A DNA stretch of 5,152 nucleotides, from NCBI GenBank assembly GCA_025354615.1, contig JANXMO010000266.1, positions 1 through 5,152 of the forward strand, in the 5' to 3' direction. The stretch comes from Burkholderiales bacterium (GTDB lineage Bacteria > Pseudomonadota > Gammaproteobacteria > Burkholderiales > Burkholderiaceae_C). The notes under the pieces were generated by a model. That model was not told the DNA's origin. It did no database searches and saw nothing but the letters and a program-made list of their open reading frames with translations. A program made the position numbers and the translations under genes. Shown here piece by piece: positions 1 through 5,152 of the stretch. The stretch's first letter is position 1. The number at the start of each line of letters is the position of its first letter.

Positions 1-1327
1 GTTTGACGACTTGCCGCCAGCCGCATTGCAACTGATTGCCCAAAAAGTGGAGCGCCCTGTAGACACAGCAGCTTTGAGCCAAGTGTCGAAGCCGGTGCAC
101 CAGTTGATCACCCGGGAAGTTCAAATTGCACACCTGGAAAAAAAAGCGGCGGCAGTAGACAAGGTCAGTGATTTCATCTCGATGCTGGGTAAAGCCGACA
201 GCCTGGTGAACGAAATGCCCAAGACGATTCACGACCTGTTGCCGCAGGAGCGAAGCGCTGTTCTGACCGCTTTGTTTCACCGTATTCCTGATCTACACCC
301 CAAAAATTTCAGCTGGAAAATCGCCTTTGAAGCCGGGTTGGACGCTGCCAAAAATTTGCCGCAGCCGCTGGCGTTATTGCTGGAACACATTCATGGGTTG
401 AAACCGGAAGAAAAGCCTGAAGCATTCCGCCAAGGGCTTGCGGCGGTGGAGACGTTGCAAGGGGACAAGTCCAAACCGCTCTTGGCGTTGTTGCAGCAAA
501 TCGGAAGCTTTTCTCAAGAGCAAACAGCTGCACCGTTCAATGCAGGCCTCACCGCCGTGTTGAAGTTGCCTGAAGCGCAGCAAGTACAACCGCTGCTGGC
601 GTTGCTGAGGACGTTTCGTTGTTTGCCTTACAGCGCAAGAAGCCTCATATTTGCAAGATGTCACCAGGCTGTCACGGTATTGGACTTGGCGCTGCAGGCG
701 CCGCCGCTGACCGAACTTTTAAAGCAAGTCGGCAGTTTGAAGATGGCCGAACGACAGGCGGCATTTGAAACAGGCCTTCTTGACCTGAAGGAGTTGCCCC
801 CGACGCAACAAGCGCCGCCACTGGCTGCTTTGCTGGGCACCGTTTGCAACCTGCCTGCAGCCAAAAGCCGCGCGGCATTTGATCTAGGCCTTCAGGCCGT
901 GTGGGCCCTGCCTGACGCACAGCAGGCGCAACCGCTGGCGGCGTTGTTAAAAGCGATTCGTTTTTTCCCTGAAGACCAAAAGCTGGAAGTGTTGAACGCA
1001 GGCCTTGCGGCCGTTGGCAAGTTGCCCGCAGCGCAGCAAGCGGAACAATGGTTTGCAGTGTTGGAAGGACACGAACATGTCGATCAATCCCAAAAACTTG
1101 AATTCTTCAATGCTGGCTTCAAGGCTGTCAGCCAATTGACGGACGCTGCGCAGCAATTGCAACCGATGAAGCTGCTGCTACTGCAGGTCACCCACATGTA
1201 CGGGAACCAAGCGAGGCCCGCAGTTGTAAAAATTCGCGCTGCCATCGCCAACTGGTCTCTAGAACAACAAGCACAACTGCAGCCACAACTGAAGTGGATG
1301 GATCAACACCCGGCCACTCAACTCTGA
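1..1327 (+). CDS. Putative type III effector, F-box-like plus 38-residue helical repeats (5' partial)
   Basis: The 5' end lies outside the window. The reading frame is open from base 2 (first codons F-D-D-L-P-P), so the TTG at base 11 is an internal leucine, not the start. The first visible ~40 residues align with residues 61-101 of the complete paralogue at 2615-4495 and carry an F-box-like pattern: LP, then ALQLIA, then D..ALS.VSK. Counting from the leucine at base 11, a linker (about residues 41-104) is followed by nine repeats of mostly 38 residues from residue 105. Their consensus is roughly AF..GL.AV..LP...Q..PL.ALL..I..LP, two short amphipathic helices per unit, resembling HEAT/ARM-type solenoids. 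No signal peptide or membrane segment is visible. By comparison with the paralogue about 60 N-terminal residues are missing, giving a full length near 500. The promoter is not in the window. An effector role is inferred from the paralogue's Hrp-type promoter. Sampled GC is low (27 of 60 bases at 121-180). Coding certainty is high, function moderate. Confidence 0.85.
   Translation, partial: FDDLPPAALQLIAQKVERPVDTAALSQVSKPVHQLITREVQIAHLEKKAAAVDKVSDFISMLGKADSLVNEMPKTIHDLLPQERSAVLTALFHRIPDLHPKNFSWKIAFEAGLDAAKNLPQPLALLLEHIHGLKPEEKPEAFRQGLAAVETLQGDKSKPLLALLQQIGSFSQEQTAAPFNAGLTAVLKLPEAQQVQPLLALLRTFRCLPYSARSLIFARCHQAVTVLDLALQAPPLTELLKQVGSLKMAERQAAFETGLLDLKELPPTQQAPPLAALLGTVCNLPAAKSRAAFDLGLQAVWALPDAQQAQPLAALLKAIRFFPEDQKLEVLNAGLAAVGKLPAAQQAEQWFAVLEGHEHVDQSQKLEFFNAGFKAVSQLTDAAQQLQPMKLLLLQVTHMYGNQARPAVVKIRAAIANWSLEQQAQLQPQLKWMDQHPATQL
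323..1324 (+). repeat. Array of nine degenerate 38-residue (114 bp) coding repeats
   Basis: Units begin at about bases 323, 422, 533, 647, 761, 875, 989, 1103 and 1217. Most are exactly 114 bp. The first is 99 bp, having lost five residues in the loop between the two predicted helices, and the second is 111 bp. Units 3, 5 and 6 are the most alike, for example LPEAQQVQPLLALL and LPDAQQAQPLAALL three units apart. The last unit replaces the usual LP with NW (AAIANWSLEQQ). Conservation is mainly at hydrophobic helix positions, so the array is old and not a fresh slippage product. Confidence 0.85.
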
Positions 1328-1520: not shown

Positions 1521-1525
1521 ACTGA

Positions 1526-2365
1526 ATGAAGAAATTTGCCCTTGCCCTGATTGCCGCCGCCTGCAGTACCGCGGCCACCGGCCTTTATGCGGCTGACACC
1601 GCCCCCGCGATTCGCGGCACGGTCGTCACCGCCTCGCAAGTGCAGTTCCAGCCCATCATGCCGGACGCCGTGTGGTTCGGTACCGTCTATGGCGACCGCG
1701 CCAGCGGCCCGCACGGCACCTTCGTGAAGATCAAGAAAGGCGCGGCCACGCCGTCACACACGCACTCGCGTTCGTACTTCGCGGTGATCCTGGCCGGCCA
1801 GGTCGAAAACCCGATGGTCGGCACGCCTGACTCGTCAAAGGCGCTGGGCGCTGGCTCTTATTACGACGTGCCGGCGAATGTCGACCACGTGACGCGCTGC
1901 GCGGCCACCTCGCCTGAAGACTGCATGACTTTCTTTGTGCAAGACGGCGCATTCGACTTCGTGACCGACCTGGCCACGAGCAAGAAGTCACTCGATCTGG
2001 GCCACACGCGAACGGCTGACCAAATCAAGTTCGACCCCATCCTGCCGGGCGACGTGTGGTTCGGCACCGCGATGGGCGACCGCAGCAAGGGCCCGCACGG
2101 CACGTTCGTCAAAATTCGAAAGGGCGCGGCCACCCCGGCGCATGTGCACAGCGGCGCTTACCGCGCAGTGGTGCTGGCGGGCGAGGTGCAAAACCCGATT
2201 CCGGCCAACCAGGCCAACCCGGCGACGTTGACGCGCGGCAGCTACTACGACGTGCCGGCCAACGCCGACCACATCACCCGCTGCCAGAAGACCAGCCCGA
2301 CCGACTGCTTGACGTTCTTCTACCAGCCGACACCGTTCGACTTCACGCCGACCGCGGCGAAGTAA
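1526..2365 (+). CDS. Exported double-cupin protein (DUF4437-like)
   Basis: This 279-residue protein starts with a Sec-type signal peptide: MKK, a hydrophobic run to about residue 20, then an alanine-rich cleavage region near residues 22-24. Cys13 lacks the leucine expected at -3 of a lipobox, so a soluble periplasmic protein is more likely than a lipoprotein. Two homologous cupin domains follow, at about residues 41-145 and 169-273. Each has a motif-1-like segment with an HxH pair (H78/H80 and H206/H208) and a motif-2-like segment GSYYDVPAN.DH with a third histidine (H121 and H249). The usual motif-1 glutamate is not evident. These histidines could bind a metal. Each domain also has two cysteines eight residues apart (C125/C133 and C253/C261), possibly a disulfide in the periplasm. 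Domain order and the FDF ending of each unit fit DUF4437-type cupins. The substrate and reaction are unknown. The gene has its own ribosome binding site and a strong terminator, and its sampled GC (42 of 60 at 2221-2280) is higher than its repeat-gene neighbours. Confidence 0.9.
   Translation: MKKFALALIAAACSTAATGLYAADTAPAIRGTVVTASQVQFQPIMPDAVWFGTVYGDRASGPHGTFVKIKKGAATPSHTHSRSYFAVILAGQVENPMVGTPDSSKALGAGSYYDVPANVDHVTRCAATSPEDCMTFFVQDGAFDFVTDLATSKKSLDLGHTRTADQIKFDPILPGDVWFGTAMGDRSKGPHGTFVKIRKGAATPAHVHSGAYRAVVLAGEVQNPIPANQANPATLTRGSYYDVPANADHITRCQKTSPTDCLTFFYQPTPFDFTPTAAK
1646..2344 (+). repeat. Internal tandem duplication of the cupin domain (384 bp offset)
   Basis: The copies at about 1646-1960 and 2030-2344 are offset by exactly 384 bp (128 codons). 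TGTGGTTCGG is found at 1671-1680 and again at 2055-2064. Clear stretches of near identity surround it, including the segments encoding GPHGTFVKI and KGAATP. All six putative metal-site histidines and the four cysteines are kept in register, so both domains appear to be under constraint. Confidence 0.85.
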
Positions 2366-2386
2366 AAAAAACGGCTGCCGAGCCCA

Positions 2387-2425
2387 GGCCCGGTTCCTGC
2401 AACAGGCAGGAACCGGGCCGTTTTT
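2387..2425 (+). terminator. Strong rho-independent terminator of the cupin gene
   Basis: A perfect 14 bp stem, GGCCCGGTTCCTGC (2387-2400) with its complement at 2406-2419, closes over a five-base loop (AACAG). It is followed by G and five T (2421-2425). It begins 21 bases after the TAA at 2363-2365. AAAAACGG at 2367-2374 can also pair with CCGTTTTT at 2418-2425, so it may act in part on the other strand. It separates the cupin transcript from the downstream repeat gene. Confidence 0.93.
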
Positions 2426-2506
2426 GTTGAGCGTGAAGCAATCGAGCGGAGCGCTGCAGCCACAACAGCAACGGTTGAACCAAGCCCGCAAATTCCGGCC
2501 CTCGCT

Positions 2507-2567
2507 TTCGCCTTTTTGCGCATCACTTCGCTTTCCTTGGCAAAGCCAACAGCTTTGTCTTCATGCT
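2507..2567 (+). promoter_or_regulatory. PIP/hrpII box promoter (HrpX/HrpB-type)
   Basis: TTCGC (2507-2511), exactly 15 bases, then TTCGC (2527-2531). This is a perfect plant-inducible promoter box (TTCGB-N15-TTCGB), the same element as the Ralstonia hrpII box (TTCG-N16-TTCG). Thirty bases further on, CATGCT (2562-2567) matches the expected YANNNT -10 motif at the expected 30-32 base spacing. The box ends 83 bases before the ATG at 2615, giving a leader of roughly 40 bases. In Xanthomonas, Ralstonia and Acidovorax this element is bound by the AraC-type regulator HrpX or HrpB, which switches on type III secretion and effector genes. Confidence 0.88.
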
Positions 2568-2602
2568 CGCGGCAACTGATTTTTATAGTCTCCAGAAAAA
2601 GC

Positions 2603-2607
2603 GAGGG
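2603..2607 (+). promoter_or_regulatory. Ribosome binding site that sets the start of the second repeat gene
   Basis: GAGGG sits seven bases before the ATG at 2615. The frame stays open upstream to a TTG at 2516, but that codon lies between the two half-sites of the PIP box and upstream of the -10, so it would not be in the message. The ATG at 2615 is therefore the preferred start. Confidence 0.75.
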
Positions 2608-2614
2608 TATCTCC

Positions 2615-4495
2615 ATGCCGCCATCTGACAAATTCAAGCTGGGGATGGCTGCGGCTGCCTTTGTGCGCGGGGCACGTGAAAGCGCGCCAGATCAACCGGC
2701 GGTGTCGGCGCGGCTGCCCAGTCCGTTGTCAATAGGAGCGGACGTGTTGGCCCCCAGCGGGCGCGTACGCGGCTTGCCGCCATTACCCCCCCGGTTCAGC
2801 GATCTGCCCGTCGCGGCGCTTCAGTTGATTGCCAGGCGGCTTGACCGCAGAGCCGACGTGGTGGCCTTGAGTGTGGTGGCGAAGCACACACGCCAATCGC
2901 TCAAGTTGGAAGTGCAGATTGCGCAGCTGACCCAACTGGCAGCACATCCCCGCATATCGGCAAGTGGTCACATCGACCTCGCCACATTTCGTTCCATTTT
3001 GGGGAAAGCCGGCAAACCTCCTGTCGACCCACCCCAGACGATTCGCGACCTGCAGCCTCAAGACCGGGGCCCCGCATTGGCGGCGTTGATGGCCCACGTG
3101 AGCAGGATTGCGCCGGGCGATGGCGCAAGCAACACACTACAGGCGTTCGACGAGGGCTTTGCCGCGGTCAGGGAGTTGCCCTTGGACCAGCAGGCACAGG
3201 CTCTGCTTCCGTTATGGAGCCATGGCCTGCTTCGCTTGCCAGATGACCGAAAAGAGGCCGCTTTCGATATCGGCTTCGACACGGTGAAAGAGCTACCCCT
3301 CGACCATCAGGAGGGGCTGCTGTTGGCGTTGTTGAACCAACTGTGGCATTTGCCACCCGCACAAATAACGAGGGTCTACGATGGGGGTCGTGCTGCCGTC
3401 GATCGATTGGAACCCAAACAACAGCTCAACCCCCTGAATGCATTGCACAGACACATCACTTCGTTGCCGGAAGATCGTCAGCAGCAAGCATTCAGCCAAG
3501 CCGTTGTAGCCATTTCGAAGTTGAGCGATGCACACAGCGCGCTGGCCCTCCGCAGCTTGTTTTCGCTGATTCAGTCGATGCGAGACACCCACCGGCGCGA
3601 AGCTTTCGACACAGGGTTGGCAGTCCTTCTCCGCTTGCCACCGGCGCATCGAGGCAAGCCCCTGCACGCGTTGAGTGAAACCATCCATCAACTACCACCC
3701 GATCAGCGAGAGAGCGCGTTCGATGCAGCGCTGGCGGCTGTGCGCCAATCAGCACCTGCCGATGTATCAAAAGCGCTCGAAAAATTGCTGTGGACGGTCG
3801 GATCTTTGCCACCGCAACACAGGCAGGCGGCGTTTGACAACGGTCTTACGGCCCTGAAGGAGTTGCCTGACACGATGCAGGCCCGCCTCATGGTCGGTTG
3901 GATCGATCAGATCGGATGCATGCAAGGCCTGCGTCGTCCGGCATTCGACCAAGCATTCGTTGCCGTCAAGGCGTTGCCGCCGGCAGAACGGATGCAGCCG
4001 TTGACCGCGTTGGTGGAGCAACTCGACAGTTTGGCCGAATACGAGCTCTTCAACGACTTCAGTGCCCTGGTGACTGCCACAAGCGAATTGCCGGTCGAAG
4101 ATCAGAAGCCGCCTTTGTCGGCGTTGATTGGACAGCTGGAACGTGTGGAGCCAGCCCGGCAGCATGACGCCTTCAACGCCCTCATCACCACCGCGAAAAA
4201 CTGGCCGGTGGCGCAGCAAGATCGCGTCTTCATGTCCGCGCTGCTGAGACAGATTCCGACGTTGGATGAGGATCAAAGACCCCAGGCCTTCCATGCAAGT
4301 CTGGACGCCGTGCGGCAATTGCCCCCACCGGAACAAATCATGCTCTTCTCTGAGCTGGTCCGGTACATCGGGAATTTGCCTGAAGGGCAAAGACCAGCCG
4401 CATTCGCTGCGGCCACCGTTGTCTTGGATCGCTTATCAGCGGAGCAGCCGTTGGACGACTTGCGTACGTCTTTAGAACAGTTTCGTCCGCGGTGA
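2615..4495 (+). CDS. Putative HrpX-regulated type III effector, F-box-like plus 38-residue helical repeats
   Basis: This is a complete 626-residue protein and a paralogue of the gene at 1-1327. Residues 1-60 are polar and rich in Ala, Pro and Ser, with no Sec signal or membrane helix, as is usual for type III secretion signals. Residues 63-95 form an F-box-like segment: DLP at 63-65, ALQLIARRLD, then DVVALSVVAK. The hydrophobic, LP and VxK positions follow the F-box pattern. A linker (about 100-176) shares a short QTIRDLQPQ-type motif with the paralogue. From residue 177 to the end run eleven full units of 37-39 residues and one partial unit, consensus AFD.GL.AV..LP...Q..PL.AL...I..LP...R, probably a two-helix alpha-solenoid like HEAT repeats. 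Known F-box effectors (GALA/RipG of Ralstonia) recruit host SKP1 and form SCF ubiquitin ligases; the same role here is inference. I do not recognise a named effector. Unit 10 (NALITTAKNWP) faintly recalls SKWP/RipS repeats, but most units do not. No clear terminator follows. Confidence 0.88.
   Translation: MPPSDKFKLGMAAAAFVRGARESAPDQPAVSARLPSPLSIGADVLAPSGRVRGLPPLPPRFSDLPVAALQLIARRLDRRADVVALSVVAKHTRQSLKLEVQIAQLTQLAAHPRISASGHIDLATFRSILGKAGKPPVDPPQTIRDLQPQDRGPALAALMAHVSRIAPGDGASNTLQAFDEGFAAVRELPLDQQAQALLPLWSHGLLRLPDDRKEAAFDIGFDTVKELPLDHQEGLLLALLNQLWHLPPAQITRVYDGGRAAVDRLEPKQQLNPLNALHRHITSLPEDRQQQAFSQAVVAISKLSDAHSALALRSLFSLIQSMRDTHRREAFDTGLAVLLRLPPAHRGKPLHALSETIHQLPPDQRESAFDAALAAVRQSAPADVSKALEKLLWTVGSLPPQHRQAAFDNGLTALKELPDTMQARLMVGWIDQIGCMQGLRRPAFDQAFVAVKALPPAERMQPLTALVEQLDSLAEYELFNDFSALVTATSELPVEDQKPPLSALIGQLERVEPARQHDAFNALITTAKNWPVAQQDRVFMSALLRQIPTLDEDQRPQAFHASLDAVRQLPPPEQIMLFSELVRYIGNLPEGQRPAAFAAATVVLDRLSAEQPLDDLRTSLEQFRPR
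3143..4492 (+). repeat. Array of eleven and a half 38-residue (about 114 bp) coding repeats
   Basis: Units start at about residues 177, 216, 254, 292, 330, 368, 406, 443, 480, 519, 558 and 596. Lengths are 37-39 residues, with the last truncated at 31. Most begin AFD or AF, carry LP near position 12 and again near position 31, and end with an Arg-rich turn such as LPPDQRES. Sequence between units varies strongly at surface positions, as expected for a binding solenoid. The units are the same type as those in the gene at 1-1327 but more numerous. Confidence 0.85.
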
Positions 4496-4674: not shown

Positions 4675-5152
4675 TCAAAACGCTGTGCTCAAGGTCAGCC
4701 GCACACTGCGCGGCTCCACGGGGTGCGAGTGCAACCCGCTCACCCCGGTAGCCGGTTCGCCTGGTAGACGCGAGGTGTAGAAATAATCGATGTCACTGGC
4801 CTGGCGGTCAAAGAGGTTGAAGACGTCCAGCGCCAGCTTGACCTGCGGTGTCAGCTTGTAGCCGACGCGTAGATACGCCAGCGTAGTGGACGCCGAGCGC
4901 TGCGAGTTGTCTTCGATCAGCGGCCGTGGGCCGAAATGGCGCAGCTGGAATTGGCCAAACCATCGGCCGAAGTCGACCACCGTGGCGCCCAGCGCCACCA
5001 CGGTATCGATGGCGCCAGGAATGTGGTTGCCGGCCGGATCGTCCTGCGTGTAGCGGGCGCGTGACAGGGAGATGTCCGCATCCAGCAGCAGCCACGGCCG
5101 CGCCACCCAGTGGTTGTTCCATTCGATGCCGCTGCGCCGGCTGGCGCGGCTG
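4675..5152 (-). CDS. TonB-dependent outer-membrane receptor, C-terminal part (5' partial)
   Basis: The frame is open to the window edge. The GTG at 5106 is internal, because the codons before it continue the barrel (SGIEWNNHWVARPW), so 158 C-terminal residues are visible. The features are those of the last strands of a TonB-dependent receptor barrel: WLLLDADISLSRARY, RWFGQFQLRHFGPRPL, the LALDVFNLFDRQ signature with NLFD near the end, the segment DIDYFYTSRLPGEP, HPVEPRSVRLTLSTAF at the end, and a terminal phenylalanine that serves as the Bam assembly signal. Such receptors take up siderophores, cobalamin or other large solutes across the outer membrane using TonB energy. The plug and specificity regions lie outside the window, so the substrate cannot be named. 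The gene runs convergently to the effector gene, 179 bases away, and its sampled GC is high (42 of 60 at 5041-5100). Confidence 0.92.
   Translation of the reverse strand, partial: SRASRRSGIEWNNHWVARPWLLLDADISLSRARYTQDDPAGNHIPGAIDTVVALGATVVDFGRWFGQFQLRHFGPRPLIEDNSQRSASTTLAYLRVGYKLTPQVKLALDVFNLFDRQASDIDYFYTSRLPGEPATGVSGLHSHPVEPRSVRLTLSTAF

What the first reader, a model, noticed from the sequence alone, without database searches (positions are those of the whole stretch)
2507..2567. Perfect PIP/hrpII box with a correctly spaced -10 ahead of an uncharacterised repeat gene
TTCGC-N15-TTCGC is followed after 30 bases by CATGCT (YANNNT), and the ATG with its ribosome binding site lies 47 bases further on. 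Ten fixed bases at fixed spacing are expected about once per million positions by chance at equal base frequencies, and here the site is in the one place that makes sense. It puts the 626-residue protein in the type III secretion regulon.
Basis: partly seen in the sequence, partly recalled or inferred. Interest (0 to 1): 0.85.

Follow-up and report, generated by a model that had tools for sequence, protein, structure and literature searches.

The report
Hrp-controlled F-box repeat effector gene
A bacterial gene carries the exact promoter signature that also precedes genes of this genome's type III injection machine, and its 626-residue product is predicted to be an injected protein that would borrow the host's own protein-destruction (SCF ubiquitin) machinery, through a likely F-box joined to a long predicted coil of 38-residue repeats.

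Summary
The box is real: TTCGC-N15-TTCGC at 2507-2531, CATGCT 30 bases on, ATG 47 bases after that. Alone it is weak evidence: the reversed control occurs 13 times in this draft genome against 34. With the -10 it is strong: YANNNT lies 30 or 31 bases after 16 of 34 perfect boxes, 12 of 43 weaker ones and 0 of 13 controls. The protein has an F-box-like N-terminal segment (above Pfam's cut-off only in paralogue C57) and 38-residue helical repeats that model as a HEAT-like solenoid. A Mycetohabitans endofungorum protein, named F-box in its record, is a distant homologue. Most likely a type III effector acting as a false SCF substrate receptor, like GALA and XopI but with a different target-binding part. 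Expression, secretion and SKP1 binding are untested.

The parts
2507..2531 (+). Perfect PIP/hrpII box TTCGC-N15-TTCGC
   Evidence: Direct reading; only perfect match in the window; one of 34 in the genome against 13 for the reversed control
2562..2567 (+). -10 element CATGCT (YANNNT), 30 bases after the box
   Evidence: this spacing (30 or 31) holds for 16 of 34 perfect boxes, 12 of 43 weaker ones, 0 of 13 control sites
2603..2607 (+). Ribosome binding site GAGGG, 7 bases before the ATG
   Evidence: Direct reading; function inferred
2615..4495 (+). Gene for the 626-residue F-box-like/HEAT-like repeat protein, predicted type III effector
   Evidence: Open frame; paralogues in the same genome; Mycetohabitans homologue
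2795..2902 (+). F-box-like segment, residues 61-96 (FSDLPVAALQLIARRLDRRADVVALSVVAKHTRQSL)
   Evidence: Pfam F-box 12.7 bits, below the 20.5 cut-off; fourth best F-box match of the whole genome; the C57 paralogue passes the cut-off with 22.7 bits
3056..4477 (+). HEAT-like solenoid of 38-residue two-helix repeats, residues about 148-621
2..1327 (+). Neighbouring paralogue (441 residues visible, start off the contig), same F-box-like segment and repeats
   Evidence: 35% identity over residues 61-471 of the 626-residue protein, E 6.5e-41; 38-residue period; its promoter lies off the contig and could not be checked
2387..2419 (+). Intrinsic-terminator-like hairpin after the cupin gene, upstream of the box
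   Evidence: 14 pairs, 11 G-C, T run; shuffles give 0.7 on average

Best explanation
The site is a PIP/hrpII box with a correctly spaced -10, and it likely lets the HrpB/HrpX-like activator of this genome's Hrp2 type III secretion system switch on a gene whose 626-residue product is predicted to be injected into a eukaryotic host cell and to act there as a false SCF substrate receptor. Proposed working: the OmpR-type regulator beside it would raise the AraC/TPR activator (as HrpG does hrpX in Xanthomonas, PMC7831014, passages); this would bind the two TTCGC half-sites and recruit RNA polymerase to CATGCT, so that transcripts would start near 2574; the Ser/Pro-rich first 60 residues would hold the secretion signal; the F-box-like segment (61-96) would bind host SKP1; the HEAT-like solenoid (about 148-621) would hold host proteins for ubiquitination. 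Shown here: box, -10, spacing statistics, hrp genes, regulator gene, repeat period, paralogues. Inferred: activation by that regulator, secretion, SKP1 binding, degradation of targets, and the kind of host.
For: Box and -10 read directly. Genome-wide spacing peak: YANNNT at 30 or 31 after 16 of 34 perfect boxes, 12 of 43 others, 0 of 13 controls (one control has it at 29); none of the 34 perfect boxes has one at 24-29. Control sites sit in long open frames (12 of 13 in frames of 250 residues or more) against 5 of 16 perfect boxes with a -10. The same boxes precede the GNAT-hrcU-hrcV stretch, hrcC and an hrpD5-like gene. Gene order shared with Xanthomonas sp. LMG 31884 (HrcU 49, HrcV 68 and 52, HpaP 32, HrcQ 34, HrcR 66% identity; HpaP over 66 and HrcQ over 163 residues only). 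AraC HTH plus TPR regulator of 492 residues next to hrcU. First 50 residues 26% Ser+Pro. F-box: three of the four best F-box matches of the genome (C57, C368, the window) lie in genes counted under box plus -10. Repeat period 38; solenoid model. Of four family candidates without a perfect box, three (C322, C597, C60) have a one-mismatch box ending GTCGC with a -10 at 30 or 31 within the 500 bases read; 78 of 4,000 random 500-base stretches hold such a site. Mycetohabitans homologue (hhalign probability 94.8, E 5e-8), named 'F-box domain-containing protein' in its record.
Against: The window's own F-box match is under Pfam's cut-off (12.7 against 20.5 bits). The F-box alignment finds no significant PDB relative (F-box only protein 31 at E 1.7, fourth of 4 rows; the C57 segment alone finds none). 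The N-terminal domain folded alone is unusable (mean pLDDT 51.6) and is low in the full model. C537, the second-best F-box match, has no box with at most one mismatch in the 500 bases before the start that I chose. For C57, counted as a box gene, the box ends 361 bases before the ATG; without it the count is two of four. One-mismatch boxes as a class are no promoters (5 of 125 have a -10 at 30 or 31, near background). The Mycetohabitans genes have no TTCG-N16-TTCG box on their strand in the two 6,615-base stretches read, and Pfam finds no family in those proteins at E 0.1. HpaP is under NCBIfam's cut-off (31.8 of 65) though over Pfam's (64.3 against 23.8), and the HrpD5 match is under its cut-off (178.9 of 300). 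D5 departs from the usual lack of acidic residues in the first 12 (rule recalled). No relative of this family in any of 59 near relatives or of 398 other genomes of the order (partly the same genomes, at most three candidates scored in each row shown), so there is little comparative evidence of constraint.
Confidence: 0.72

Rival explanations
1. The promoter is a true Hrp promoter, but the N-terminal segment is not a working F-box: the protein is a type III effector that acts only as a HEAT-like binding scaffold, in the manner of the SKWP (RipS) effectors.
For: F-box score below the cut-off in the window protein; low-confidence model of that segment; repeat member C597 shows no F-box at E 0.1 yet has repeats and a near-box; a HEAT/armadillo effector, RipS4, is listed without mention of an F-box (PMC4617103, passages).
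Against: The aligned paralogue C57 passes Pfam's F-box cut-off; three of six aligned segments match PF00646 and four match F-box-like at E up to 1; the Mycetohabitans homologue is named F-box in its record.
Confidence: 0.2
2. The box is a chance match and the gene is an ordinary bacterial repeat protein outside the Hrp regulon.
For: Perfect boxes also occur by chance (13 of the reversed control in this genome); 18 of 34 perfect boxes lack the -10 at 30 or 31; 11 of 200 shuffles of the window hold a perfect box.
Against: Box plus -10 is expected 0.4 times and seen 16 times; the site lies after a terminator-like hairpin and 83 bases before an ATG with a ribosome binding site; relatives C57, C60, C322 and C597 carry boxes or near-boxes too.
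Confidence: 0.05
3. The promoter is real, but the protein works inside the bacterium or as a helper of secretion (chaperone or regulator) and is not injected.
For: A box and HrpX control do not suffice: in Acidovorax citrulli one such gene product was not translocated (PMC6913199, passages).
Against: Ser/Pro-rich N-terminus (26%), eukaryote-like F-box segment, several paralogues, relative in an endofungal bacterium.
Confidence: 0.1

Closest known systems
GALA effectors (RipG) of Ralstonia solanacearum
   Same: N-terminal F-box followed by repeats, several paralogues; RipG7 and other GALAs bind plant SKP1-like proteins (PMC4617103, PMC8150971, passages); Hrp control is recalled
   Different: GALA repeats are leucine-rich; here no LRR is found and the repeats are 38-residue helical pairs. 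Another boxed gene of this genome, on C368, does have an F-box-like segment plus LRRs
XopI of Xanthomonas
   Same: F-box effector found through its PIP box, binds a SKP1-like protein and leads a host protein to degradation (PMC4270169, PMC8150971, passages)
   Different: NCBIfam XopI gives 12.9 bits against a cut-off of 800, in the repeats and not in the F-box-like segment
F-box domain-containing protein of Mycetohabitans endofungorum (WP_199180516.1, WP_235090806.1)
   Same: Distant homologue over residues 206-400 (hhalign 94.8%, E 5e-8), F-box-like segment before the shared part; the genus has an hrp type III system used on its fungal host (a title in the reference list of PMC10746252, and passages of PMC7482071)
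   Different: 477 residues, 23-24% identity in the alignments, no PIP/hrpII box on the gene's strand in the stretches read
SKWP (RipS) effectors of Ralstonia solanacearum
   Same: HEAT/armadillo-type repeats in a type III effector (PMC4617103, passages)
   Different: 40-42-residue repeats, much longer protein (RipS4 2574 residues), no F-box mentioned in the passage read
HrpX regulon of Acidovorax citrulli
   Same: Perfect TTCGB-N15-TTCGB boxes at about the same number: 78 in that genome, 41 tied to HrpX-regulated genes (PMC6913199, passages), 77 here
   Different: The term F-box does not occur in that paper's main text; no expression data here

Membership tests
PIP/hrpII-box (HrpX/HrpB) promoters | TTCGB-N15-TTCGB | tested here: met
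   2507-2531, perfect
PIP/hrpII-box (HrpX/HrpB) promoters | -10 element 30-32 bases downstream | tested here: met
PIP/hrpII-box (HrpX/HrpB) promoters | HrpX/HrpB-type AraC regulator in the genome | tested here: met
   AraC HTH plus TPR, 492 residues, beside hrcU; orthology to HrpB/HrpX is inferred from architecture and place, as database relatives carry only general names or none
PIP/hrpII-box (HrpX/HrpB) promoters | Transcription depends on that regulator | not testable with these tools
   No expression data
Hrp2 type III secretion system | hrcU-hrcV-hpaP-hrcQ-hrcR gene order | tested here: met
   Contigs C386 and C124, same order in Xanthomonas sp. LMG 31884; the C386-C124 junction is not assembled; Massilia locus L127 has another order
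F-box proteins | F-box domain above the Pfam cut-off | tested here: inconclusive
   Window protein 12.7 of 20.5 bits; aligned paralogue C57 22.7 bits
F-box proteins | Binds SKP1 | not testable with these tools
   Needs a bench test
GALA (RipG) effectors | Leucine-rich repeats after the F-box | tested here: not met
   No LRR family among Pfam matches at E up to 1
XopI | NCBIfam NF041349 cut-off of 800 bits | tested here: not met
   12.9 bits
HEAT-like solenoids | Stack of two-helix repeats of roughly 40 residues (range recalled) | tested here: met
   38-residue period, model with paired helices and PP2A scaffold as first row; no Pfam HEAT family matched, so descent from HEAT proteins is not claimed
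SKWP (RipS) effectors | SKWP sequence family | not tested
   No member was fetched or compared

The most novel reading that the evidence does not exclude
A new class of injected ubiquitin-ligase adaptors: F-box plus HEAT-like solenoid, with three full members and shorter kin in one unnamed Burkholderiales genus and a distant cousin in the endofungal Mycetohabitans, in which each copy keeps the SKP1 hook and changes the solenoid to catch a different protein of a fungal or protist host.
Probability: 0.35. Interest if true: 0.72.

Novelty: new variant of a known kind. Interest (0 to 1): 0.55.

Why it matters
Promoter and spacing give a ready list of 28 box-plus-(-10) sites, and so of candidate effectors, in a genome without a known host. 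If the F-box reading holds, the same trick (host SCF capture) is joined to an unrelated binding scaffold, which would show that F-box effectors can arise by pairing one hook with different repeat types; the C368 gene with LRRs in the same genome makes the comparison direct. The Mycetohabitans link points to fungi as possible hosts and would make that testable.

Tried and rejected

The -10 test looked at offsets 20 to 44 and the peak at 30 or 31 was then counted; the published spacing is 30-32. One of the 13 control sites (C57:4777) overlaps a true box. The hypergeometric value assumed about 2,800 genes and counts C57, whose box is 361 bases away; I do not rest on it. The Ser+Pro comparison left out three apparatus genes and two proteins under 50 residues of the 28; starts were chosen by rule, and the 96 control frames were picked by length and not curated. 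By that rule two starts (C535, C248) lie only 5 and 6 bases after the -10, so some starts are surely wrong.

Full report
Observation. Earlier in-frame starts (TTG at 2516 and 2555) lie inside the box or before the -10; no in-frame ATG, GTG or TTG lies between the -10 and 2615 (read). A terminator-like hairpin at 2387-2419 follows the cupin gene.

Chance. The genome G000 is a draft of 2,804,475 bases in 697 contigs, 80.85% complete. Perfect boxes number 34 on both strands; the same pattern read backwards numbers 13. The TTCGB form numbers 77 against 84, so looseness destroys the signal. I took the surroundings of all 77 sites and of all 13 control sites and asked where YANNNT falls. For the 34 perfect boxes it falls 7 times at 30 and 9 times at 31 bases, once at 32, and never at 24-29; for the 43 weaker boxes 3 times at 30 and 9 times at 31; for the 13 controls never at 30 or 31, once at 29. 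The background is 0.015 per position, giving an expectation of about one among the 34. The controls lie in long open frames (12 of 13 in frames of at least 250 residues), the perfect boxes with a -10 mostly do not (5 of 16; the window's site is one of the five, because the 709-codon frame of its gene runs back over it). So the promoter class is real in this genome and the window's site has each feature tested.

Hrp system. Of three FHIPEP matches, C355 is flagellar (72% to a Pseudorhodoferax locus); C386 and C124 hold the two ends of an HrcV. C386 carries an OmpR-type regulator (4411-5229), the AraC/TPR protein (5317-6792, minus strand), a box at 6962 with TAAATT 31 bases on, a GNAT-domain gene, hrcU and the start of hrcV; C124 carries the end of hrcV, hpaP, hrcQ and hrcR. 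hrcU to hrcR run in the same order in Xanthomonas sp. LMG 31884. C390 has hrcC (over its NCBIfam cut-off) and an HrpD5-like gene (178.9 bits, cut-off 300) behind boxes with a -10, though hrcC's start is 311 bases from its -10. The regulator's relatives in the database are AraC-type proteins; the nearest is 44% identical and unnamed, and those with an organism (Roseateles, Mitsuaria, Aquincola) are 37-39% identical with general names. Calling it HrpB/HrpX-like is an inference from architecture, length and neighbourhood.

Regulon. Twenty-eight sites have a box and a -10. Downstream lie, besides apparatus genes, a 1,072-residue ankyrin protein, a 431-residue protein with an F-box-like segment and LRRs (C368), a protein with weak XopL and XopAE similarity (C601), and three with alike starts beginning MLK (C505, C91, C211); seven of ten boxed proteins scanned had no Pfam family at E 0.01. 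Leaving out three apparatus genes and two proteins under 50 residues, 18 of 23 have at least 20% Ser+Pro in the first 50 residues, against 17 of 96 control frames. The window protein has 26%. A Ser+Pro content of at least 20% is a published trait of type III signals (PMC3968052, passages).

Family. By sequence search: 2-1327 (35%), C57, C597 and a C322 fragment. Only the window gene, 2-1327 and C57 show both the F-box-like segment and the repeats. C60 and C537 were found by the F-box scan and join by eye through that segment and the sequence after it; C537 is cut by its contig end. The far end of C57 repeats the start of its own gene (142 of 143 bases) behind a second, different perfect box with TAGATT at 31, so a further copy begins there. 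Of the four without a perfect box that I scanned, C60, C322 and C597 have a box ending in GTCGC instead of TTCGB, with a -10 at 30 or 31, within 500 bases upstream; C537 has none. Such a site occurs in 78 of 4,000 random 500-base stretches. The GTCGC variant occurs 19 times in the genome; the other 16 were not tested for a -10.

Elsewhere. Among 72,556 plasmid records the protein matches five Mycetohabitans records at E 2e-4 to 8e-3, four M. endofungorum and one M. rhizoxinica. Profile comparison of four own members with two M. endofungorum proteins gives 94.8% and E 5e-8 over 194 columns. Those genes are annotated F-box, but Pfam finds no family in them at E 0.1 and no box stands on their strand in the stretches read. 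In M. rhizoxinica the type III system is crucial for the symbiosis with Rhizopus, and two candidate effectors with LRR and F-box-like domains are overexpressed on contact (PMC7482071, passages); whether one of these is this homologue I could not check.

Judgement. The added claim, an SCF-capturing effector with a HEAT-like target-binding part, is likely and untested. It works like GALA and XopI; it is a member of neither (no LRR; 12.9 of 800 bits).

Noticed in passing
L116 (C60) 1971-1995 minus; L045 (C322) 6323-6347 plus; L044 (C597) 2281-2305 plus: Three kin of the window gene have a variant box TTCGB-N15-GTCGC, each with a YANNNT 30 or 31 bases on; it may be a second accepted half-site in this genome, though one-mismatch boxes in general show no such excess.
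   Followed up: partly
L050 (C505) 365-2838, L098 (C91) 1523-3058, L099 (C211) box 1116 minus: Three boxed genes with alike MLK starts, one of 787 residues; no Pfam family at E 0.01 for C505 and C91, no NCBIfam family for C505: perhaps a second unknown effector-like family. Kinship is by eye.
   Followed up: no
L043 (C57) 4775-5002: A second perfect box with TAGATT at 31 leads into the start of a gene identical over 142 of 143 bases to the start of the C57 gene; the contig ends there, as it would at an unresolved repeat.
   Followed up: partly
L114 (C368) 10162-10186 minus and the gene behind it: A 431-residue protein with an F-box-like segment and leucine-rich repeats behind a box with a -10: a GALA-like layout in the same genome.
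   Followed up: partly
L047 (C535) 2061-2177: Two boxes back to back, both with a -10, face a 1,072-residue ankyrin protein one way (its first ATG only 5 bases after the -10) and a protein of at least 630 residues the other way.
   Followed up: no
window 1526-2365: Between the two F-box/repeat genes lies a two-domain cupin protein (DUF4437, Cupin_7, Cupin_2) with a signal-peptide-like start and no perfect box of its own.
   Followed up: no
window 4675-5151 minus: C-terminal end of a TonB-dependent receptor (Pfam barrel 25.1 bits, just under its 27 cut-off), cut by the contig end.
   Followed up: no
L045 (C322) 6430-6956: Repeat-family fragment in a frame of 133 codons that does not connect to a plausible start behind its near-box; it looks like a remnant.
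   Followed up: no
L040 (C386) 4411-5229: The OmpR-type regulator beside the AraC/TPR gene matches Pfam in its DNA-binding part, not as a receiver domain at E 0.1.
   Followed up: no
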